Part shown: positions 13,832 through 43,408 of the stretch, piece by piece
Position numbering within the stretch: position 1 is the first letter of the stretch
How the letters are laid out: each line of letters opens with the position of its first letter
Origin: Chlorobiaceae bacterium
GTDB lineage: Bacteria > Bacteroidota > Chlorobiia > Chlorobiales > Chlorobiaceae
DNA length: 53,289 bases
Direction: 5' to 3'
Assembly: GCA_013335405.1 (NCBI GenBank)
Contig: JAAXVR010000021.1
Location: forward strand, 1 to 53,289
Notes under the pieces: generated by a model
Database searches by the model: none
Told to the model about the DNA's origin: nothing
What the model saw: only the letters and a program-made list of their open reading frames with translations
Translations under genes and position numbers: made by a program

Positions 13832-14098
13832 CTATTTAAATCTGAATTTACTGAAAAGAATTATCAGGATAAGCAGGAGCGATATGCTGTTGGCTGCGAT
13901 CATGGGGGGATCGTTTTTTTCGATTCCGTACATCAGCCAGAGGCCGATTCCAAGGGTCATGGAGAGGGCCCAGCCGAGGCTGATGTCGCGCGTTCGTCTC
14001 GTCCTCAGTATCCGTACGACCTGGGGAAAGAATGCGAAGGTCGTTATGATGCCTGCCGCAAAGCCGATGTAGGTGGTTGTGTCCATCATCTGGTTCAT
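13832..14098 (-). CDS. SemiSWEET-type sugar transporter
   Basis: An 88-residue membrane protein with three hydrophobic segments, the triple-helix unit of bacterial SemiSWEET/PQ-loop transporters that work as dimers. The family pattern is clear: IGFAAGIITTFAFFPQVVRILRTR (with the PQ), then TRDISLGWALSMTLGIGLWLMYG, and an Asn-containing last helix (AANSISLLLILIILF). The ATG at 14098 is used, but the Met four residues later (MDTTTYIG) is equally plausible. The substrate is probably a sugar. Confidence 0.88.
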   Translation of the reverse strand: MNQMMDTTTYIGFAAGIITTFAFFPQVVRILRTRRTRDISLGWALSMTLGIGLWLMYGIEKNDPPMIAANSISLLLILIILFSKFRFK

Positions 14099-14209: not shown

Positions 14210-15880
14210 TCACATCTGGTTGACATAACGTCTTATCAGCCTGAGGATGTCGCCGGTGCTTGTGGCACCGAGCATCATGTTTCGCCAGTGACTGTCCGAT
14301 CCCATTCTGCTGATGGTGCCCAGGAGCCTGATGTGGATGTTCGGTTCTTCTGCCGGTGAAAGAATCATGAACATGATTCTTGCCGAATTGGAGGATTCGT
14401 CGTCGAAAATGCCGATTTTGCTGACGCCTATCGCGACAATCGGTGACGTTAGCTTTTCAAGCTTTGCATGGGGAATGGCGATATCTTCGCCTATGAATGT
14501 GCTTCCCTGTTTTTCCCGTTCGAGGACGGTTTCGGTTGCATATTTCTCATCGAGGGAGGTGTTTGCTTTACAGCACTCGTGAACAAGACCGGCAATTGCT
14601 TCGTCTTTTTCAACCAGGTTTTCCCAGAGCAGGATCCGGGCTTTTCTCAGGGGTTCTTTCCATTCCTTCCTCTGTTTGTTTTTCTGCAGCATGCTTTCGC
14701 GGATATCCGACAGGTATTGGGAAGGAGCTTTCGCACTCTTTTGCGTTTCTGCTTTCCGGACGTCGAGTACCGTGATACGGACCCCCCGGCTTTCATCGAT
14801 CAGCCGTTCGATAATGGTACGCTTACCCGCGATTCTTGCCCAGAACGGCAGTTGTTTTCCCGAGTTGCCGATGACGATATTTCCTACCCGGTACTCACGG
14901 GCGAACTGCAGGATTGTCCTGACGATATCATCACCTTTATAGGTAAATACCGTGGCTCCGAGTTCCTGCGCGAGGGTCAGCGTTTTCGACATGGCTCTCT
15001 GCACCCTGGCATCGATCAATACCGGGGTGTCCGAAAGCATCTGGACGTAAACCGCATACCAGTTCCTGTTCAGTCGTCCCGCAATTCTTGAAGCGTATCT
15101 CAGGATCGCTTCGCTGTTGACCGTTTTCGAGCTCAGGCAGACCATGAGTTGATCGGGTATCGAAAGCGTATCGTCAAGTTTCGGGATGCGCCTTTTCGAA
15201 TCGATCTGTGCGGCAAGTTCCCGAAAGGCAAGTTCCCGAAGCTGTTCGAGGTTTTCCTGCAGAAAAAAATTATCCAGCGCCGTTTCGATTTTTCCGGGAA
15301 CGTACACTTTTCCTTCAAGCAGGCGCTGGCGGAGATCATCGGTGGTTATGTCGACATTGACGAGCTGCTCTGCCATGGTGATGATTCTGTCCGGTACCCG
15401 TTCTCTCACCTTGACATTGGTCGCATTTTCTACGGTTTCATACAGGCTTTCGATGTGCTGCACGTTCAGTGTCGATATGACGTGTATCCCTGCCGCAAGG
15501 ATTTCCTCGACATCTTCATACCTCTTGGCGTTTTTGCTTCCCGGGACATTGGTATGGGCGAGTTCGTCCACAAGCACCACCTCGGGTTTCCTTTCGAGGA
15601 TTGCATCGAGGTCCATTTCCGTGATTTCTATACCATGGTATTCCACTGTTTTCCTGGGGATGACCTCGATGCCGTCAAGCAGCGCCAGGGTTTCTTTTCG
15701 ACCGTGGGTTTCGACAATGCCTGCTGCAATGTCGATGTTGCTCGACTTGAGGCGCCGGGCTTCCTGAAGCATCAGGTATGTTTTTCCCACTCCAGCACAG
15801 TAGCCCAGGTATATTTTAAGTTTTCCCCGCTGCGATTGCTGTATGAGCGTCAGGAAGCTTTCCGCACGGTTTGTTTCCAT
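14210..15880 (-). CDS. kdpD: KdpD sensory domain fused to a PTS EIIA domain, no kinase
   Basis: A 556-residue protein in the kdpD position of a kdp operon. The N-terminus is the KdpD cytoplasmic module: P-loop GYCAGVGKTYLML near residue 28, EVVLVDELAHTNVPGS near 105, and RYEDVEEIL. A USP-like domain follows (about 230-370: VMVCLSS-type strand, then IVIGNSGKQLPFW). The transmembrane and histidine-kinase parts of normal KdpD (~890 residues) are absent. Residues ~405-555 form a PTS EIIA type-2 domain with IAIPHAKLEKL, whose His (~471) is the expected phosphorylation site. It cannot phosphorylate a response regulator itself; it may sense K+ or PTS state and act through protein contact. ATG at 15880; TTG at 15889 is the alternative. 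Confidence 0.85.
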   Translation of the reverse strand: METNRAESFLTLIQQSQRGKLKIYLGYCAGVGKTYLMLQEARRLKSSNIDIAAGIVETHGRKETLALLDGIEVIPRKTVEYHGIEITEMDLDAILERKPEVVLVDELAHTNVPGSKNAKRYEDVEEILAAGIHVISTLNVQHIESLYETVENATNVKVRERVPDRIITMAEQLVNVDITTDDLRQRLLEGKVYVPGKIETALDNFFLQENLEQLRELAFRELAAQIDSKRRIPKLDDTLSIPDQLMVCLSSKTVNSEAILRYASRIAGRLNRNWYAVYVQMLSDTPVLIDARVQRAMSKTLTLAQELGATVFTYKGDDIVRTILQFAREYRVGNIVIGNSGKQLPFWARIAGKRTIIERLIDESRGVRITVLDVRKAETQKSAKAPSQYLSDIRESMLQKNKQRKEWKEPLRKARILLWENLVEKDEAIAGLVHECCKANTSLDEKYATETVLEREKQGSTFIGEDIAIPHAKLEKLTSPIVAIGVSKIGIFDDESSNSARIMFMILSPAEEPNIHIRLLGTISRMGSDSHWRNMMLGATSTGDILRLIRRYVNQM

Positions 15881-15915
15881 AGCCGACAAGAGCTGGAGAT
15901 TGCCAGGGGGTTCCT

Positions 15916-16525: not shown

Positions 16526-18604
16526 TTAGAGCAAACCGGCCAGGGCGAGAAGCATATCGATCAGCTTGATGCCGGCGAAAGGCATGAGGACGCCTCCGAC
16601 GCCATAGAGAAGCAGATTTTTTCTCAGGATGACATCTGCTCCGAATGGCCGGTATTTGACTCCCCTGATCGCGATCGGGATGAGGGCCGGAATAATGAGT
16701 GCATTGAAAATGAGTGCCGAAAGAATTCCGCTCCGGGGTGTGCTCAGGTGCATGACGTTCAGAATATCGAGTCCGGGAAGGGCCAGGATGAACATGGCGG
16801 GAATAATAGCAAAATACTTGGAGATATCGTTGGCGATGGAAAATGTCGTCAGTGCTCCCCTGGTCATGAGCAGCTGTTTGCCTATTTCAATGACTTCCAC
16901 CAGTTTTGTCGGGTCGCTGTCGAGGTCGACCATGTTGCCGGCCTCTTTTGCTGCCTGGGTTCCCGAGTTCATTGCAACGCCAATATCTGCCTGCGCAAGG
17001 GCGGGCGCATCATTGGTGCCGTCACCCATCATGGCGACAAGCCGTCCTTTCTGCTGTTCCCCGCGAATATAGGCGAGCTTGTCTTCCGGTCGGGCTTCGG
17101 CGATAAAATCATCGACTCCGGCATCTTTCGCTATCGACGCTGCTGTCAGCGGGTTGTCGCCCGTGACCATGACAATACGCAACCCCATCGCACGCAACCT
17201 GGCAAAACGGTCTGAAATACCGGGTTTCAGGATATCGGCCAGCCCTACGACTCCGAGAGGATGTGTCGTTTCGGCAACGACGATAGGGGTCATTCCTGCC
17301 CTGGCGATTTCATCGACATGGTGCTGTAATTCATCGGGAACGTGGCCTCCCGCTCTGGTGATAAAATTCCTGATCGCATCCGGCGCTCCTTTTCTCAGCG
17401 AGTTGCCATCCTTGCGGTCAACCCCGCTCAGTCTCGTCTGGGCAGTGAACGGGATGACAGTATCTTCAGTTTCACGGGGCGCTGACATTGAAAGTGTCTG
17501 TTCTCCAAGCGCGACGATTGACTTGCCTTCCGGGGTGATATCACCTGCTGAAGCCTGCATGGCTATGGCGGCAAGGTGTTCCATCGTTACTCCGGCGAGG
17601 GGGCGGTAACAGGTGGCCTGCCTGTTGCCCATCGTTATGGTGCCTGTCTTGTCGAGCAGCAGGGTATCGACGTCTCCTGCAAGTTCGACCGCTTTTCCGC
17701 TCTTCGCCAGAACGTTGGCTGAAAGAGCCCGGTTCATTCCTGCAAGACCGATCGCGGAAAGCAGGGCTCCAATCGTGGTGGGGATCAGGCAGACAAGCAG
17801 TGCGACGAGTGTCGGCACAGGAATGTCGATACCGAAATATCTTCCGATAGGCCACAGCGAGCCGGTGACCAGGAGAAAAGCGAGGGTCAGACCGGAAAGA
17901 GTTACGGTCAGGGCAAGCTCATTCGGTGTTTTCTGGCGGACCGCACCTTCGACGAGGGCAATCATCCTGTCGAGAAAGGAGTTGCCCGACGATGCGGTGA
18001 TCTGAACGACAATAGTGTCGGAAAGCACTCTTGTCCCACCGACGACCCCTGCCTGGTCGCTGCCCGCCTCGCGAAGTACCGGGGCTGATTCGCCCGTAAT
18101 TGCGGATTCGTCGATCATGGCCGCTCCCCTGATCACTTCGCCGTCACCCGGAATATTTTCCCCGGCAGATACCACGACAAGGTCGTTTTCCCGAAGTTCT
18201 TCCGAGCTGACGATGATCTCCCTGCCATCCTGGATTTTCCTTGCCACAGTTTGTTTCCTGGCATTTTTCAGGCTGTCGGCCTGTGCTTTTCCTCGTGCCT
18301 CGGCGAGGGCTTCGGCAAAGTTTGAAAAGATGACGGTCAGCCAGAGAATGATGGTGACCGAGATAGTGTAGACAAGGTTGTCCTTGCCCGATAAGGCATC
18401 CGAGAAGGTGACCAGTGTCGTCAGGATTGCGCCCGCTTCGGTCACGAACATGACCGGATTTCTCGCCATTGCGCGCAAATCGAGATTCACCAACGCTTTC
18501 CATGTTGCCGTAAGCACCAGTTTCTTTTCAAAAACCGAGGCAGCTATTGCATGGCGGCGAGTTGTTTTCGCCGGAGTGCCGTTATGTGTGGCGGTATCGC
18601 TCAT
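16526..18604 (-). CDS. kdpB: K+-transporting P-type ATPase subunit KdpB
   Basis: A 692-residue P-type ATPase, the energy-coupling subunit of the high-affinity Kdp pump. The actuator motif ITGES is near residue 160, the phosphorylation motif DKTGT near 310, and the hinge GDGTNDAPAL near 520; hydrophobic segments flank the cytoplasmic domains. Length is standard. Starts with ATG at 18604, 39 bp after kdpA. Confidence 0.97.
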   Translation of the reverse strand: MSDTATHNGTPAKTTRRHAIAASVFEKKLVLTATWKALVNLDLRAMARNPVMFVTEAGAILTTLVTFSDALSGKDNLVYTISVTIILWLTVIFSNFAEALAEARGKAQADSLKNARKQTVARKIQDGREIIVSSEELRENDLVVVSAGENIPGDGEVIRGAAMIDESAITGESAPVLREAGSDQAGVVGGTRVLSDTIVVQITASSGNSFLDRMIALVEGAVRQKTPNELALTVTLSGLTLAFLLVTGSLWPIGRYFGIDIPVPTLVALLVCLIPTTIGALLSAIGLAGMNRALSANVLAKSGKAVELAGDVDTLLLDKTGTITMGNRQATCYRPLAGVTMEHLAAIAMQASAGDITPEGKSIVALGEQTLSMSAPRETEDTVIPFTAQTRLSGVDRKDGNSLRKGAPDAIRNFITRAGGHVPDELQHHVDEIARAGMTPIVVAETTHPLGVVGLADILKPGISDRFARLRAMGLRIVMVTGDNPLTAASIAKDAGVDDFIAEARPEDKLAYIRGEQQKGRLVAMMGDGTNDAPALAQADIGVAMNSGTQAAKEAGNMVDLDSDPTKLVEVIEIGKQLLMTRGALTTFSIANDISKYFAIIPAMFILALPGLDILNVMHLSTPRSGILSALIFNALIIPALIPIAIRGVKYRPFGADVILRKNLLLYGVGGVLMPFAGIKLIDMLLALAGLL

Positions 18605-18643: not shown

Positions 18644-20299
18644 TCAACGCATGATCGAAGCAAGGTGGTCGGCCACGGGTCCGAGGACTGCAACCGGCAG
18701 GAAGAGCAGGGCGCCGATGAAAACCACACTGCCGAGGATGATCGTACCGAACAGCAGCGTATCGGTTCTGAGCGTTCCGCTTGTTTCGGGAACGGCTTTT
18801 TTCGCCGCCAGCGATCCCGCGATGGCGAGAGGAAGGATGATGGGCACATACCTTCCGACGAGCATGACGATCCCTGTGGCGATATTCCATGGAACGGTGT
18901 TGTCGCCGAGGCCTTCAAAACCGGAGCCATTGTTTGCCGCTGCAGAAGTGAACTCGTAGAGGATTTCCGTGAACCCGTGTGCACCGGTGTTCAGCACTGT
19001 CGATGCTCCCCAGGGCGTGGCCGCGAAGAGCGCCGTGCCGCCGAGGATCAGCAGGGGATGGACAAGAAGAGCGAGAAGCGCCAGTTTCATCTCATGGGTT
19101 TCTACTTTTTTCGCGAAATATTCAGGGGTTCGTCCCACCATCATGCCGCAGATGAAGACACCCACGATGATGAAGATGAACATATTGATGAAGCCGACGC
19201 CGGCGCCGCCGAAAATCACGTTCAGCCACATGCCCGCAAGCGGAACGAGGCCGGTCAGGGGATTGAGGCTGTCATGCATGCAGTTGACCGAACCGTTGCT
19301 TGTCGCAGTGGTCACGGATGCCCAGAGTGCGCCTGTGCCGGGTCCGAAGCGAAGTTCCTTGCCCTCGAGGTTCGGCCCCGCTGCTGCCGGAAGCCCCGAG
19401 AATGCCGCTGAAGGAGCGTTTTCGAGGTTCATGGCGATGAATACCTTGATGATCAGCAGCGCCATCATAACCGTAAAAATGATAGCGGCATCTTTTTTTC
19501 GCCCGGTGATGAACCCGAACATCCAGACTGATGCCATCGGTATGATGATGATCGCCATGCATTCTGCACTGTTGGTGAATGCAGACGGGTTTTCGAAAGG
19601 ATGAGTTGAATTTGGCCCGAAATATCCACCGCCGTTGGTCCCGAGCTGTTTGATCGCGATCATCGCGGCAACCGGTCCGCGCGCGATAGTCTGCGTGGCC
19701 CCCTCAAGCGTTTTTGCGACGGCGGCGCCTTCGAAGGTCATGGGAACCCCTCCGGCAATCAGGAGGAGCGAGAGGATCAGGGCAAGGGGGAGCAGTATGA
19801 GGAGTGTTGAGGTGGAAAAGTCCCGGTAGAAATTGCCGAGCATGGCTTTGCCTCCGAGGCCTCTGGAAAGGGCTGCAAGACAGGCGATTCCTGTCGCTGC
19901 GGATACGAACTGCAGCCACATGAGTCCGAAAAGCTGCGAGAAATAGCTCATGAATACCTCGCCGGAATAATGCTGGAGGTTCGTGTTCGTAACGAACGAG
20001 GAAGCAGTGTTGAATATAAGGCTTGCCTCCAGTGCTGTTTTGCCGTCGGGGTTGAGAGGCAGTACCTGCTGGAATGCGAGAATGATCGTAACGGTTGCGA
20101 ACATCAGTATGTTTACGATAAGCATGCTCCAGGCATACTCTTTCCAGTCCTGGGGTTTCCGGGTGATCTCCCCCACGATGATGCCGGAAATATTTCCCTG
20201 ACCGTTGCCGGTATCGAGAACAAAGGCCATGTATTTGCCGAGCGGCCATGAAAGCAGGGCCGGAACGGCAAGGAGAAGTAATCCGGATAACAGTTCCAT
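18644..20299 (-). CDS. kdpA: K+-transporting ATPase subunit KdpA
   Basis: A 551-residue, highly hydrophobic subunit that binds and conducts K+. Family features: an N-terminal helix, FVTNTNLQHYSGE, LGTNGGGYFGPNSTHPFENP, VGRTPEYFAKKVE and SAAANNGSGFEGLG, the selectivity-filter-like loops of the SKT superfamily. ATG at 20299, 12 bp after kdpF. Confidence 0.97.
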   Translation of the reverse strand: MELLSGLLLLAVPALLSWPLGKYMAFVLDTGNGQGNISGIIVGEITRKPQDWKEYAWSMLIVNILMFATVTIILAFQQVLPLNPDGKTALEASLIFNTASSFVTNTNLQHYSGEVFMSYFSQLFGLMWLQFVSAATGIACLAALSRGLGGKAMLGNFYRDFSTSTLLILLPLALILSLLLIAGGVPMTFEGAAVAKTLEGATQTIARGPVAAMIAIKQLGTNGGGYFGPNSTHPFENPSAFTNSAECMAIIIIPMASVWMFGFITGRKKDAAIIFTVMMALLIIKVFIAMNLENAPSAAFSGLPAAAGPNLEGKELRFGPGTGALWASVTTATSNGSVNCMHDSLNPLTGLVPLAGMWLNVIFGGAGVGFINMFIFIIVGVFICGMMVGRTPEYFAKKVETHEMKLALLALLVHPLLILGGTALFAATPWGASTVLNTGAHGFTEILYEFTSAAANNGSGFEGLGDNTVPWNIATGIVMLVGRYVPIILPLAIAGSLAAKKAVPETSGTLRTDTLLFGTIILGSVVFIGALLFLPVAVLGPVADHLASIMR

Positions 20300-20311: not shown

Positions 20312-20392
20312 TTAGAATTTTTCAGGGTTCAGTATCGCAACGAGCAGGTAACCCACGCATGCGACAAGTGTGACAAGGACAATGATATTCAT
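20312..20392 (-). CDS. kdpF: KdpF small membrane subunit
   Basis: A 26-residue, single-helix peptide (VTLVACVGYLLVAILNPEKF at the C-terminal end) located 12 bp before kdpA. The LNPEKF-type ending and position are diagnostic for KdpF, which stabilises the KdpABC complex in E. coli. The ATG at 20392 is preceded by a GAGGGAT Shine-Dalgarno sequence; a longer frame upstream has no support. Confidence 0.88.
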   Translation of the reverse strand: MNIIVLVTLVACVGYLLVAILNPEKF

Positions 20393-20786: not shown

Positions 20787-21014
20787 TTACCATAGCAGCA
20801 TGATTTCGGCACCCGGAAAAACTTCCCTGATCTTCATGATCAACGTATCTTCATCAAACGGACCGAACCCGTCCGGATTGAGCGGGAAATTCCCGCAGGC
20901 GCTGTCAGAACTTCGGGAAAATATTCCGTCACTGTTTTTCCGGAGTAACACGATGAACCATTGATTGTTTCCGGTTTCAGTGATCCACTCGAGAATCACC
21001 CTTTCCTGTGGCAT
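20787..21014 (-). CDS. Small hypothetical protein
   Basis: A 75-residue frame with a good Shine-Dalgarno (GAGGGA before the ATG at 21014). No family recognised. It is soluble, with one Cys, begins with a short strand-like stretch (RVILEWITE, then WFIVLLR) and ends in a hydrophobic LPGAEIMLLW-like strand (FPGAEIMLLW). It lies between the sensor kinase and the kdp operon on the same strand. A real gene is plausible, but codon evidence is slight. Confidence 0.45.
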   Translation of the reverse strand: MPQERVILEWITETGNNQWFIVLLRKNSDGIFSRSSDSACGNFPLNPDGFGPFDEDTLIMKIREVFPGAEIMLLW

Positions 21015-21239
21015 ATTCCCTCACTGCAGTTGATTGGTTCTCAACAGAATTCCCCACAGGGTGTCAAGCAAAATGCATGCCAGATAACAGCAGTCGGAAA
21101 AACGGGTATGCAGGGAGGTTTACAGAGAGATTAGTCTTGAGAAATGCAAGGAAGGGATGAGAAGAAATTGCATGATTCAGGACGGAGGGGCGGTGAAATC
21201 AGGCAGCCTGTTTTCAGAGTGGCAATTTTTAACGTGTAT

Positions 21240-23069
21240 TCATGCTTTTTCGGCACCCGCCGGGAGGGTGAAGCTGATCGCAGATCCTTTTCCGGGGGAG
21301 CTTGTTGCCCGTATCGAACCACCATGAGCCTCGACCATCCGCTTGACGATGGCAAGCCCCAAACCGACCCCGGCTCTCTGCTGCTTCCCGGGAACCTGAT
21401 AGAACAGATCGAAAATATGCTGAAGATGCTCCTGGGCAATACCCTGTCCAGAGTCTTCGACCGAAAACCTGACATTCGAATGTTCCTTTTGCGCCCTCAC
21501 CGTGATGGTGCCCCCGGGAAAGGTGAAGCGGACAGCATTGGACAGAAGGTTGGCGAACACGTGCTGCATGCTTGCCATGTCGGCATGCACAACGGGAAGC
21601 TCATTTCCGATATCGGTAATGAGCGAGATGCCTTTGTCCCTCGCTTCCAGAAGAAATGGCTCGATTCCCTTGCTGACGATAGTTCCGGGCTGCTGAGGCT
21701 GCAGGTCCAGTCCTGCCTTGCCGGCTTCTATGCGGTTCAGGTCCAGTAGTTCGTCAAGTATTTCCGTCAACCGCTCACTGTCTTCCCTGGCTGAAAGAAG
21801 CAGTTCGCCCTGTTTTTCGTTCACGGAGCCTATTTTTTCTTCAAGCAGCAGGTGAATGGACATTCTCAGGGAGGTGAGCGGGGTGCGGAGCTGATGGGAA
21901 ACGGTCGACACGACACTGCGTTTCATCTCTTTCTGTTCGTGTGCCTGGGTAACATCCCTGAAGAGCAATACCGTGCCGTTGAGCTTGTCCGTTTCAAGGA
22001 GCGGGGGAACCGGTGAGGCGACAGGCTGATAAAAATATTCATGGCTGCCGATGAATTTCTGGATAAATCGCTGTTCATCCGTCTCGACAGTCCGCATTTC
22101 CTTTATCGAGCGACTGACGATATCGAAAAACAATGATGTGCCGACATCCCGGACCCGATGACCGGGCTGCAGCCCGAAAAGCTCCCGGGCGCTTTGCGTG
22201 GCGACTGTCACGATGCCTTCGGGATTGATAATGGCGATAGGTGTCGGCAGCAGGTTCATGACTTCCTGTGTTGCCATGTGCGTTCTCTGCAGGTTTTCCT
22301 CATCATTCTTTTTCATTTTCCTCAATGACAGAGCCATTTCATTGAATGCGCCTGACAGTATTCCTATTTCGTCATTCGAACTTTTTTCGATGACCACGTC
22401 GAGATTGCCGCTCCTGATTTCGTTCGCCGAAGCGATGAGTTTGCGTATGGGTTTGAGTATCCACCGGCGCGACTGATAGCTGAAAAGAATCGAGATGACG
22501 GCACTTGCGAGGATTGTTCCAAGGATACTGTTGTGCGCTGAAGAGGCCATGCTTCTTGCCGTATTGCCGGCTTCGATCATACTCGCCTGGTTCATTGCGA
22601 GGACCTGTCCCGCAAGGCTTTTTATTTCGGTGAACAGAGGCAGGAGGCTTTTGAAATATTGCTCTTTCCGGGTGTGGAGGGGTCTCGACCTGTCGGCGAC
22701 TTCATGAAGGATTTCTGCATAGCGTTCAAACAGCCGGGCAATATTTTTCGCTTTTTCGCCTTCTCCCGGAAGAGTGATATTCCCGAGCTCAATTGCGAGT
22801 GCTATCCTGAATTGCACCTCATGCTGTCTGATCTTTTCGAGGTCCTGTTCCTGTCTGCCGGCTAAAGATGAGAGAAGGGCGGTATCGATTTTATCGATGG
22901 TCTCCATCATTTTCTGGCTGGCGACGACGCTGCGGTAATTTTCCCTGAGGATCACATCGACGGCGCTGCCGAGGCGGTCGATCCGGGTAACGGTCAGAAA
23001 GCCCATCACTGCGACAATCAGCAGTATGCCGCCGTATCCCAGCAGGATTTTCTGCCGTATTCCGATCAT
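21240..23069 (-). CDS. KinB-like membrane sensor histidine kinase
   Basis: A 609-residue kinase. Transmembrane helices at about 9-28 and 182-198 bracket a helical periplasmic sensor; then HAMP (~199-255), PAS (~265-370, PTPIAIINPEG), HisKA with STVSHQLRTPL (phosphoacceptor His ~392), and HATPase with NLLSNAVRF, VEDSGQGI and GVGLGLAIV. Domain order and motif wording resemble KinB, partner of the NtrC-family regulator AlgB. It follows the regulator gene by 66 bp on the same strand, so they form a pair, and kdp lies ~850 bp downstream. The stimulus is unknown; K+ limitation is a possibility only from position. Confidence 0.85.
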   Translation of the reverse strand: MIGIRQKILLGYGGILLIVAVMGFLTVTRIDRLGSAVDVILRENYRSVVASQKMMETIDKIDTALLSSLAGRQEQDLEKIRQHEVQFRIALAIELGNITLPGEGEKAKNIARLFERYAEILHEVADRSRPLHTRKEQYFKSLLPLFTEIKSLAGQVLAMNQASMIEAGNTARSMASSAHNSILGTILASAVISILFSYQSRRWILKPIRKLIASANEIRSGNLDVVIEKSSNDEIGILSGAFNEMALSLRKMKKNDEENLQRTHMATQEVMNLLPTPIAIINPEGIVTVATQSARELFGLQPGHRVRDVGTSLFFDIVSRSIKEMRTVETDEQRFIQKFIGSHEYFYQPVASPVPPLLETDKLNGTVLLFRDVTQAHEQKEMKRSVVSTVSHQLRTPLTSLRMSIHLLLEEKIGSVNEKQGELLLSAREDSERLTEILDELLDLNRIEAGKAGLDLQPQQPGTIVSKGIEPFLLEARDKGISLITDIGNELPVVHADMASMQHVFANLLSNAVRFTFPGGTITVRAQKEHSNVRFSVEDSGQGIAQEHLQHIFDLFYQVPGKQQRAGVGLGLAIVKRMVEAHGGSIRATSSPGKGSAISFTLPAGAEKA

Positions 23070-23135: not shown

Positions 23136-24476
23136 TCATTCAATCCTGTATTGTTTCCGTTTACGCCAGAGCGTCGCCTGGTCGATTCCCAGGATCCCGG
23201 CGGCTTCCTGCAGGGATTTTGTCTGTTCCAGTACCCTGCGGATGTGCAGTTCCTCGATTGTGTCAAGAGGTACCGGGTCACCAAGGCCCGGCGATGTTTT
23301 GCCGCCCGTCATCGTATCCGGAAGCAGTTCCCTGCCGACGAGGTCACGGTCGCAAAGGATGACAGCCCGCTCGATGACGTTTCGAAGCTCTCTGATATTA
23401 CCGGGCCAGGCATATTCGCGGAACATGCGAAGCACATCCCCGGTGAAGCCATGGATTGTCTTGTGATACCTGGCATTGAAAAAAGCGAGTGTACTTTCGG
23501 CGATGATGCCGATATCGTTTTTTCGTTCTCCGAGCGACGGCAGATTGACCTGAACGACATTGAGGCGATAGTAGAGGTCTTCGCGGAAGCTTCCCGATGC
23601 GACGGATTTATCAAGGTCAATGTTCGTCGCCGTGATAATCCGCACATCGGCATGTCGGGTCTGGTGGTCACCGACGCGCTCGTACTCCCGATCCTGGATG
23701 AACCGGAGCAGTTTTGGCTGGATTGACAGCGGCAGATCGCCGATCTCGTCAAGGAAGAGTGTTCCGCCGTCGTACGTCGCGATCCTTCCGGGGTTGTCCC
23801 TGAGAGCACCGGTAAATGCTCCTTTCACATGCCCGAAAAGCTCGCTTTCCAGCAGTTCGCTGCTGAGCGAAGGGCAGGAAATTGTTCCGAACGGTTTCTG
23901 CGATCTTCTGCTCCACTGATGGATGGAGCGTGCAAGGAGGCTTTTGCCGGTTCCGCTCGGTCCTCGGAGCAGCACGACCGCCTCTGATGGTGCGACGTGT
24001 CTTGCAAGCTCAATAGCTTGCTGCATTGCATGATCATTTGAAATAAATGTCGCTTCCGGGTTGAGCTGGTCGATGGTGTCCTGCAGGGATGCAATTCGCC
24101 TTTCCATGGCACATAAAGCACCGAGGCGCTCCGTTACCAGTTCGAGCTGGCCGGGTGTGAAGGGTTTCGCGATATAGTCCGCGGCACCGCGCTTCATTGC
24201 CTCGACTGCCGTGTCGATAGAAGCGTAGGCAGTCATGACAACCACCTTCATGGCCGGTGCGAGTGATGAAAAAGAGTTGAGCAGATCGAGTCCGCTTTGG
24301 GTGCCGAGTCTCAGATCGACAAATGCGAGATCAAACCTCGATCGGGCGGTTTCGTCGAGCGCATGACGGAAATTGTCGGCAGTAACGACATTGTGGCTGC
24401 GTGACTGGAGGAAAAGGGCAAGGGTTTTCCTGATGTTCGCCTCGTCATCGACAACGAGGATATTGAGCTGTTGCAT
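23136..24476 (-). CDS. NtrC-family sigma-54 response regulator (AlgB-like)
   Basis: A 446-residue activator. The receiver domain has VVDDE and the phosphoacceptor Asp54 in AFVDLRLG. The AAA+ domain (~140-365) has Walker A GPSGTGKS, GAFTGA (the sigma-54 contact loop, intact), LFLDEIGDLPL and an arginine-finger region. The C-terminal Fis-type HTH ends EAAGILGIDQATLWRKRKQY, close in wording to AlgB. It should activate sigma-54 promoters when phosphorylated by the adjacent kinase. No KdpE is present in the window, so it might serve kdp; that is inference. Confidence 0.9.
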   Translation of the reverse strand: MQQLNILVVDDEANIRKTLALFLQSRSHNVVTADNFRHALDETARSRFDLAFVDLRLGTQSGLDLLNSFSSLAPAMKVVVMTAYASIDTAVEAMKRGAADYIAKPFTPGQLELVTERLGALCAMERRIASLQDTIDQLNPEATFISNDHAMQQAIELARHVAPSEAVVLLRGPSGTGKSLLARSIHQWSRRSQKPFGTISCPSLSSELLESELFGHVKGAFTGALRDNPGRIATYDGGTLFLDEIGDLPLSIQPKLLRFIQDREYERVGDHQTRHADVRIITATNIDLDKSVASGSFREDLYYRLNVVQVNLPSLGERKNDIGIIAESTLAFFNARYHKTIHGFTGDVLRMFREYAWPGNIRELRNVIERAVILCDRDLVGRELLPDTMTGGKTSPGLGDPVPLDTIEELHIRRVLEQTKSLQEAAGILGIDQATLWRKRKQYRIE

Positions 24477-42623: not shown

Positions 42624-43091
42624 ATGCAGGAACGTGAATTTTCGGTGAGGAATGCACGCCTTGCCGATGCGTCGGCAATTTCGGCCATCACCGCCGAATA
42701 TGCCCGCCAGGGGATCATGCTTGAACGATCGTCCGAAAATATTGTTGAAAATATTCGTAATTTTTTTGTTGCGGAGCACTCCGGGGAGGTTATCGGCTGC
42801 TGTGCGATAGCCTTTTATACCGGCAAGCTTGCGGAAATACGTTCCCTCGCGGTTTTCAACCGTTTCAAGATGAAGGGCATCGGCAGGATCCTGGTTGAAA
42901 AAGCCGAAGCGGTTTTGCGGGAGGAGGGTGTCACCGAGGTTTTTGTTCTGACCCTCAACCCGGTTTTTTTCAGGCGGGTCGGCTACAGCGAGATCAGGAA
43001 GGAGTATTTTCCGCAGAAAATATGGAGGGATTGCACCCATTGTCCGAAGCTCATGGCCTGCGATGAAATCGCGATGGTGAAAAAACTTTGA
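42624..43091 (+). CDS. ArgA-type GNAT N-acetyltransferase
   Basis: A 155-residue GNAT acetyltransferase. After the acetyl-CoA site (FKMKGIGRILVEKAEAV) it carries the C-terminal signature of short N-acetylglutamate synthases: VGYSEIRKEYFPQKIW, then CTHCPKLMACDEIAM with three Cys. Such stand-alone ArgA proteins start arginine synthesis. The ATG at 42624 follows AGGGG; the gene begins 2 bp after obg. Substrate is from family resemblance. Confidence 0.78.
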   Translation: MQEREFSVRNARLADASAISAITAEYARQGIMLERSSENIVENIRNFFVAEHSGEVIGCCAIAFYTGKLAEIRSLAVFNRFKMKGIGRILVEKAEAVLREEGVTEVFVLTLNPVFFRRVGYSEIRKEYFPQKIWRDCTHCPKLMACDEIAMVKKL

Positions 43092-43141
43092 TACGCCGCT
43101 CCTGGATGGGGCAACAATTTACTAACAAGGAACCAGAGATC

Positions 43142-43408
43142 GTGATTATTCAGGAAGTTGTCATCAGAAACAAAGCCGGGCTCCACACCAGGCCAGCAGC
43201 AGCGGTCGTCAAACTGGCTTCCCGTTTCAAATCCGATTTTTTCATCGAGATGCAGGGCGTCGAGATCAACGCCAAATCCATCATCGGTGTCATGAGCCTC
43301 GCCGCTCCCAAAGGAACGCGTCTGACGCTCAAGCTTCAGGGCGAAGATGCCCCGGAAGCGGCCCGGCAGCTTGTAGAGTTTTTTGAACAGGGTTTTGGAG
43401 AGCAGTAG
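43142..43408 (+). CDS. ptsH: Phosphocarrier protein HPr
   Basis: An 88-residue HPr. The active His lies in NKAGLHTRPAA (His ~15) and the regulatory serine site in INAKSIIGVMSLAAPKG (Ser ~46), both intact. GTG 43142, after AAGGA, gives the normal length; an earlier TTG at 43088 would overlap the previous gene. No enzyme I or sugar permease is in the window, but an EIIA domain is fused to KdpD at 14210-15880. The serine site suggests HPr kinase control, as is common outside sugar-transporting bacteria. Confidence 0.92.
   Translation: MIIQEVVIRNKAGLHTRPAAAVVKLASRFKSDFFIEMQGVEINAKSIIGVMSLAAPKGTRLTLKLQGEDAPEAARQLVEFFEQGFGEQ

What the first reader, a model, noticed from the sequence alone, without database searches (positions are those of the whole stretch)
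14210..15880. KdpD whose kinase half is replaced by a PTS EIIA domain
The protein in the kdpD slot keeps the P-loop sensory domain and the USP domain but ends in an EIIA type-2 domain with an intact PH motif (His ~471). In E. coli, free EIIA(Ntr) binds KdpD and controls kdp; here the partner seems fused in cis and the kinase is gone. This could be a K+ sensor regulated by phosphorylation from a minimal PTS.
Basis: partly seen in the sequence, partly recalled or inferred. Interest (0 to 1): 0.72.

Follow-up and report, generated by a model that had tools for sequence, protein, structure and literature searches.

The report
Potassium regulator with fused PTS domain
In green sulfur bacteria the potassium-pump regulator KdpD has lost its histidine-kinase half (a separate kinase gene sits upstream) and carries instead a sugar/nitrogen-type phosphotransferase receiver domain, which suggests that the cell's PEP phosphorylation state directly controls potassium uptake; this is predicted from sequence and structure and has not been shown in the laboratory.

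Summary
The ORF at 14210-15880 (ATG start) encodes KdpD P-loop domain + USP + EIIA type-2 domain, by Pfam, by an AlphaFold model (pLDDT 87.8) and by PDB fold matches (KdpD NTD Z 30.8; PtsN Z 19.9; KdpD-USP Z 17.3). It is not an assembly error. All 37 KdpD genes in 61 Chlorobiaceae genomes have frames of fusion length, the 26 examined carry EIIA, and fusions also occur in Syntrophaceae, Phycisphaerales and two other lineages. The PH histidine (His471) is invariant in all 28 fusions checked. EI, HPr, HprK and a free PtsN are encoded.
The interpretation needs correcting. (1) The histidine kinase is present in trans: a HAMP-PAS-HK and an NtrC-type regulator lie just upstream. (2) The P-loop domain is itself a serine-kinase domain (Nat Commun 2024, target KdpB), with catalytic residues intact. 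(3) The same fusion also sits in KimA (K+ symporter) operons without any kdpFABC, beside the HK, so KdpB cannot be its only target.
Best explanation: a short, kinase-split KdpD whose input has become PTS phosphorylation of the fused EIIA. No diadenylate cyclase was found in 61 family genomes. New variant of the known short KdpD; phosphotransfer is untested.

The parts
14210..15880 (-). kdpD-EIIA fusion gene (556 aa from ATG 15880; the ORF extends to TTG 15889)
15203..15832 (-). KdpD N-terminal P-loop domain (Pfam PF02702), the atypical serine kinase domain of PMC11018627
   Evidence: E 1.3e-90; 2r8r Z 30.8; catalytic residues
15779..15805 (-). Walker A, GYCAGVGKT (G-X5-GKT as in E. coli KdpD)
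15563..15568 (-). Walker B D-E pair (equivalent to E. coli KdpD D109/E110)
14762..15160 (-). USP-like domain (residues 244-376)
   Evidence: Pfam weak; 7ji4 KdpD-USP Z 17.3
14231..14650 (-). PTS EIIA type-2 domain (PtsN-like)
   Evidence: (E 6.8e-22), (1a6j Z 19.9)
14468..14470 (-). codon of the PH-motif histidine (His471 from the ATG; PtsN His73), predicted phosphorylation site
   Evidence: invariant in 25 of 25 fusions aligned; also present in L090, L091, L092
15916..16506 (-). kdpC
16526..18604 (-). kdpB; E172/S173 align with E. coli E161/S162, the Ser target of KdpD
18644..20299 (-). kdpA
20312..20391 (-). kdpF (approximate start)
   Evidence: TIGR02115 weak match E 7e-5, below cut-off; sequence
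21240..23069 (-). histidine kinase in trans (HAMP-PAS-HisKA-HATPase_c), adjacent to kdp or to the fusion gene in the relatives
23136..24476 (-). NtrC-type sigma-54 response regulator with GAFTGA loop
21067..21082 (-). sigma-54-like promoter site TGGCATGCATTTTGCT (1 mismatch; the only site this good in the window)
   Evidence: similar site in L088
43088..43408 (+). HPr with NKAGLHTRPAA active-site motif, a possible phosphoryl donor

Best explanation
The protein is a kinase-split KdpD of the short (KdpD+USP) type that gained a PtsN-like EIIA domain as its input module. SHOWN here by sequence and structure: three intact domains; conserved serine-kinase residues; invariant PH histidine; a regulatory PTS encoded in the genome; and a histidine kinase/NtrC pair encoded in trans. 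INFERRED: EI and HPr phosphorylate His471 when PEP is plentiful relative to pyruvate, and the phosphorylation state of the EIIA domain sets the activity of the rest of the protein. In kdp operons the output is most likely the N-terminal atypical serine kinase, which would switch off KdpFABC by phosphorylating KdpB Ser173. In all contexts it would probably also act on the neighbouring histidine kinase, which replaces the transmitter that PtsN contacts in E. coli KdpD. In Chlorobiaceae, where no diadenylate cyclase was found, PTS phosphorylation would take the place of c-di-AMP as the signal for a short KdpD. The sign (whether phospho- or dephospho-EIIA inhibits K+ uptake) is not predicted.
For: Domains and folds. 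Catalytic residues of the serine kinase: GKT, DE and R190 are invariant in 24 Chlorobiaceae fusions, L063 and 8 short KdpDs; KdpB keeps E172/S173; function of these residues from PMC11018627. PH His and R/E/T/H active-site positions of EIIA conserved. PTS: EI in 59 of 61 family genomes; own EI with the GGKTSH motif, two HPr, HprK, free PtsN. HK in trans beside the fusion or its operon, with sigma-54-like sites just before the HK gene in 12 of 15 other Chlorobiaceae kdp loci at <=2 mismatches, against 1.4% of random 290-bp windows. DAC in 0 of 61 family genomes, control ringing in 11 of 14. Fission product in G165: a free EIIA (L066) nested inside the fused KimA-type EIIA clade and keeping the PH motif, so the EIIA part appears useful alone.
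Against: No phosphotransfer, serine-kinase or binding data exist for any fusion. Fusions also occur in hosts that do have a diadenylate cyclase (G164; hosts of L090 and L092), so 'EIIA replaces c-di-AMP' is not general. Four nearly complete genomes (G044, G090, G161, G173) have the fusion but no kdpA, so KdpB cannot be the general target. The adenine-contact W39 is Y in the window and L in five KimA-type copies. The model gives no confident domain-domain contact (pTM 0.52, low-confidence linkers at 238-243 and 383-388).
Confidence: 0.55

Rival explanations
1. The fusion is mainly an accessory subunit of the adjacent histidine kinase: EIIA, as PtsN does with the KdpD transmitter in E. coli, binds the HK core and tunes transcription through the NtrC-type regulator. 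The P-loop domain is kept for nucleotide sensing, not for KdpB phosphorylation.
For: The HK is the partner common to kdp-type and KimA-type loci. Four genomes have fusion and HK but no kdpA. KimA-type copies of one clade have W39L, which may weaken adenine binding. E. coli PtsN acts through the transmitter domain (Moerk-Moerkenstein 2017, title as cited in PMC13104625).
Against: Catalytic D109/E110 equivalents are invariant, more than pure nucleotide sensing should need; KdpB E172/S173 are conserved in the window. Short KdpDs elsewhere act on KdpB without an HK partner (PMC11018627). The window HK has HAMP-PAS, not the GAF domain that PtsN binds in S. fredii.
Confidence: 0.3
2. The fused EIIA is a constitutive docking or scaffold domain; its phosphorylation has no regulatory effect.
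For: EIIA evolves faster than the KdpD part (window vs L088: 70% vs 88% identity); no functional data.
Against: The PH histidine is invariant in 28 of 28 fusions, including hosts in other phyla; EI is nearly universal in the family. A pure scaffold would not be expected to keep the phosphoryl site.
Confidence: 0.12
3. Assembly or annotation artefact joining two genes.
For: None found.
Against: 26 sequence-checked Chlorobiaceae loci, and fusion-length frames for all 37 KdpD genes in 61 genomes.
Confidence: 0.01

Closest known systems
Short KdpD/USP atypical serine kinase (e.g. Deinococcus geothermalis KdpD, PMC11018627; NCBIfam NF038185 'KdpD-like non-kinase potassium sensor')
   Same: KdpD P-loop domain + USP, no DHp/CA; encoded at the end of kdpFABC; serine-kinase residues conserved; HK on a separate chain
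   Different: Extra C-terminal EIIA domain of about 150 aa; no diadenylate cyclase found in Chlorobiaceae; also occurs with KimA and without KdpFABC; scores 343 bits, below the NF038185 cut-off of 550
E. coli KdpD with free EIIA(Ntr)/PtsN control
   Same: Same two players (KdpD NTD-USP and an EIIA type-2 of PtsN type)
   Different: EIIA is in cis, while TM, GAF, DHp and CA are absent from the chain; in the literature PtsN contacts the transmitter or GAF parts, which are missing here
ptsN2 encoded in alphaproteobacterial kdp operons (PMC13104625, PMC9239096)
   Same: A dedicated EIIA genetically tied to kdp
   Different: Separate gene there, fused to the KdpD NTD-USP here
Na+/H+ exchanger-EIIA_2 fusions (L070, L071 in this study)
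   Same: EIIA type-2 fused in cis to a cation-transport protein in other genomes of the broader phylum
   Different: Fused to the transporter itself, not to a regulator

Membership tests
KdpD sensor histidine kinase (canonical) | N-terminal KdpD domain | tested here: met
   PF02702 E 1.3e-90
KdpD sensor histidine kinase (canonical) | TM/GAF and DHp-CA histidine kinase core in the same chain | tested here: not met
   No HisKA/HATPase_c in the chain; residues 408-559 are EIIA
Short KdpD/USP (NF038185 KdpD_non_kinase) | KdpD + USP architecture without kinase core | tested here: met
   Profile covered 6-369 of 373; USP fold by 7ji4 Z 17.3
Short KdpD/USP (NF038185 KdpD_non_kinase) | Score above the curated cut-off | tested here: not met
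   343 bits against a cut-off of 550
Atypical serine kinase of KdpD (PMC11018627) | Walker A G-X5-GKT, Walker B DE, adenine pair W39/R190 | tested here: met
   GKT, DE and R conserved in all; W39 is Y in the window, an aromatic substitution also seen in short KdpDs
Atypical serine kinase of KdpD (PMC11018627) | Phosphorylates KdpB Ser162 | not testable with these tools
   Target residues E172/S173 conserved; activity not assayed
c-di-AMP-binding KdpD USP (motif (A/G/C)XSXSX2N(Y/F), PMC8214093) | Complete motif | tested here: not met
   Window reads C-L-S-S-K-T-V-N-S: second Ser is K, final Y/F is S. The motif was derived from Firmicutes, so binding is not excluded
PTS EIIA type-2 / PtsN | EIIA_2 fold and Pfam cut-off | tested here: met
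   78 bits against 27; 1a6j Z 19.9, rmsd 2.4 over 148 residues
PTS EIIA type-2 / PtsN | PH-motif phosphorylatable histidine | tested here: met
   Aligned with PtsN His73, invariant
PTS EIIA type-2 / PtsN | PtsN equivalog score (TIGR01419) | tested here: not met
   51.7 bits against 138.7: a PtsN-like domain, not a PtsN orthologue
PTS EIIA type-2 / PtsN | Accepts phosphate from HPr | not testable with these tools
   EI, HPr and HprK encoded

The most novel reading that the evidence does not exclude
In green sulfur bacteria a PEP-driven phosphorelay (EI-HPr-EIIA) gates, within one polypeptide, a serine kinase that shuts the KdpFABC potassium pump, and in KimA operons a KdpB-independent K+ output. 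A phosphohistidine signal would thereby replace c-di-AMP as the link between cell energy state and potassium uptake.
Probability: 0.35. Interest if true: 0.75.

Novelty: new variant of a known kind. Interest (0 to 1): 0.58.

Why it matters
It puts a PTS receiver domain on the same chain as the serine kinase that post-translationally switches off the Kdp pump. This gives a concrete candidate input for short KdpDs in organisms where no diadenylate cyclase is found, and a single-protein system in which to test how PTS(Ntr) controls potassium. The same module in KimA operons without kdp shows that short-KdpD proteins can have functions beyond KdpB.

Tried and rejected
Assembly error or chance match: rejected. 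'Fusion goes with loss of diadenylate cyclase' as a general rule: rejected, because G164 and the hosts of L090 and L092 have both fusion and cyclase, and some Bacteroidota with unfused short KdpD lack it. KdpB as the only target: rejected by fusion-bearing genomes without kdpA. Simple vertical inheritance from the Bacteroidota/Ignavibacteria short KdpD: not supported; Chlorobiaceae fusions group with Desulfurivibrio, Syntrophaceae and Phycisphaerales sequences (SH-aLRT 99), pointing to lateral transfer. Number of fusion origins left open: the KdpD tree needs 4 changes at fewest (2 forced by starred branches); in the EIIA tree the fused domains group but on long branches. A sigma-54 site upstream of kimA was sought and not found. 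A KimA homologue in the window's own genome: none found (without positive control). Literature search for a KdpD-EIIA fusion returned none, in an open-access library only. A scripted check failed on a pattern and was rerun.

Full report
WHAT IS THERE. The ORF on the minus strand at 14210-15889 has its first possible start at TTG 15889 and its likely ATG at 15880 (556 aa). Pfam finds KdpD at residues 20-229 (E 1.3e-90), PTS_EIIA_2 at 414-553 (E 6.8e-22) and a sub-threshold Usp match at 256-345 (E 0.0084). An AlphaFold2 model built from 34 relatives has mean pLDDT 87.8. Its three domains match KdpD NTD 2r8r (Z 30.8), KdpD USP 7ji4 (Z 17.3) and PtsN 1a6j (Z 19.9). pTM is 0.52 with low-confidence linkers at 238-243 and 383-388, so the model says nothing firm about how the domains pack.

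NEIGHBOURHOOD. The operon on the minus strand reads: NtrC-type regulator (23136-24476), HAMP-PAS histidine kinase (21240-23069), a conserved 75-aa ORF (20787-21014), kdpF, kdpA, kdpB, kdpC, kdpD-EIIA, SemiSWEET (13832-14098). The histidine kinase is therefore encoded in trans. One sigma-54-like site with a single mismatch lies at 21067-21082, between the kinase gene and kdpF; no other site in the window is that good, although the count of loose matches is not above chance. In 12 of 15 other Chlorobiaceae kdp loci a site with <=2 mismatches lies just before the kinase gene, in most about 39 nt before its start (1.4% of random 290-bp windows have one). A sigma-54/NtrC control of kdp by the separate kinase is thus likely, but inferred.

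DISTRIBUTION. In 61 genomes of the family, 32 carry KdpD in 37 copies, and every open frame is 542-656 aa, i.e. of fusion length. EIIA was verified by sequence in 24 Chlorobiaceae copies and in the named MAGs L088 and L089. These form one clade (SH-aLRT 99) that sits with Desulfurivibrio (unfused, same operon order), Syntrophaceae, Phycisphaerales and an unnamed MAG (fused), not with the short KdpDs of Bacteroidota/Ignavibacteria. A divergent fusion occurs in G164, another family of the same broader phylum. Lateral transfer is the simplest reading; whether EIIA was gained once or several times is open.

TWO OPERON TYPES. Besides the kdp type, eight loci have regulator - KimA homologue - kinase - kdpD-EIIA without kdpABC (the regulator or KimA gene is off-contig or unseen in some of these). 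The transporter matches KimA 6s3k at E 4e-65. G044, G090, G161 and G173 have the fusion but no kdpA in the genome. The histidine kinase is thus the common partner, and KdpB cannot be the only target. Five of these copies form a separate long-branch clade in which the adenine-contact residue W39 is Leu. Regulators of KimA-type loci mostly have an altered GAFTGA loop (GSFPGA, GSFAGA, GSFSGA; one GSFTGA). In G165 a KimA-kinase-regulator cluster lacks the fusion, and a free 221-aa EIIA nested in the KimA-type fused clade exists elsewhere: an apparent fission that kept the PH motif.

CATALYTIC RESIDUES. PMC11018627 shows that the KdpD N-terminal domain is an atypical serine kinase that phosphorylates KdpB Ser162 and inhibits the pump, that short KdpD/USP forms keep this domain, and that D. 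geothermalis KdpD is stimulated by c-di-AMP. Here Walker A (GKT), Walker B (DE) and the R190 equivalent are invariant among fusions; W39 is Y in the window. KdpB E172/S173 align with E161/S162. The statement that 'the kinase is gone' therefore holds only for the histidine kinase core in this chain.

PTS AND c-di-AMP. The genome encodes EI (602 aa, GGKTSH), two HPr (one in the window at 43088-43408), HprK and a free PtsN. EI is found in 59 of 61 family genomes. PTS permease components were not searched. No DAC domain (PF02457) was found in any of 61 family genomes while the control rang in 11 of 14 genomes; the genomes examined from neighbouring families of the order have it. The window USP does not fit the Firmicutes c-di-AMP motif. 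However, other fusion hosts (G164, hosts of L090 and L092) do have a cyclase, so a strict exchange of c-di-AMP for PTS is not supported outside Chlorobiaceae.

MECHANISM. Most likely (0.55): PTS phosphorylation of His471 sets the activity of a split KdpD, with the serine kinase on KdpB as output in kdp operons and the neighbouring histidine kinase as a further target. Rival (0.30): only the histidine kinase is the target. Rival (0.12): EIIA is a constitutive scaffold. Which phospho-state inhibits uptake is not predicted: in the literature it is dephospho-PtsN that acts in E. coli and rhizobia, and phospho-PtsN in P. putida (PMC13104625).

NOVELTY. Short KdpD without a kinase core is known and named (NF038185; PMC11018627). 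PtsN control of KdpD in trans is known (PMC13104625, PMC9239096). A KdpD-EIIA fusion was not found in the papers searched, with the caveat that only open-access papers are held. I rate it a new variant of a known kind.

Noticed in passing
window 20787-21014 (-): Unannotated conserved 75-aa protein with no Pfam or NCBIfam match. In relatives (L047, L048, L051, L052, L054, L055) it lies directly downstream of kdpD-EIIA; in the window and L088 it lies between the kinase gene and kdpF. A candidate small Kdp-associated protein.
   Followed up: partly
L041, L043, L044, L053, L056-L059: KimA-type K+ symporter operons that carry the KdpD-EIIA fusion and the HK but no kdpFABC; the NtrC-type regulator mostly has an altered GAFTGA loop.
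   Followed up: partly
L066 8487-9152 and L054 2035-7425 (genome G165): Free 221-aa EIIA nested in the fused KimA-type EIIA clade, while the KimA-HK-regulator cluster of the same genome lacks the fusion: an apparent gene fission.
   Followed up: partly
L070 5419-7095, L071 6928-8916: Na+/H+ exchangers with a C-terminal EIIA type-2 domain in other genomes of the broader phylum.
   Followed up: no
window 13832-14098 (-): SemiSWEET sugar transporter gene directly downstream of kdpD-EIIA, shared only with the nearest relative L088 among the loci examined.
   Followed up: partly
61 Chlorobiaceae genomes: No diadenylate cyclase (PF02457) in any, although the genomes examined from other families of the order have one: the family may lack c-di-AMP signalling.
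   Followed up: partly
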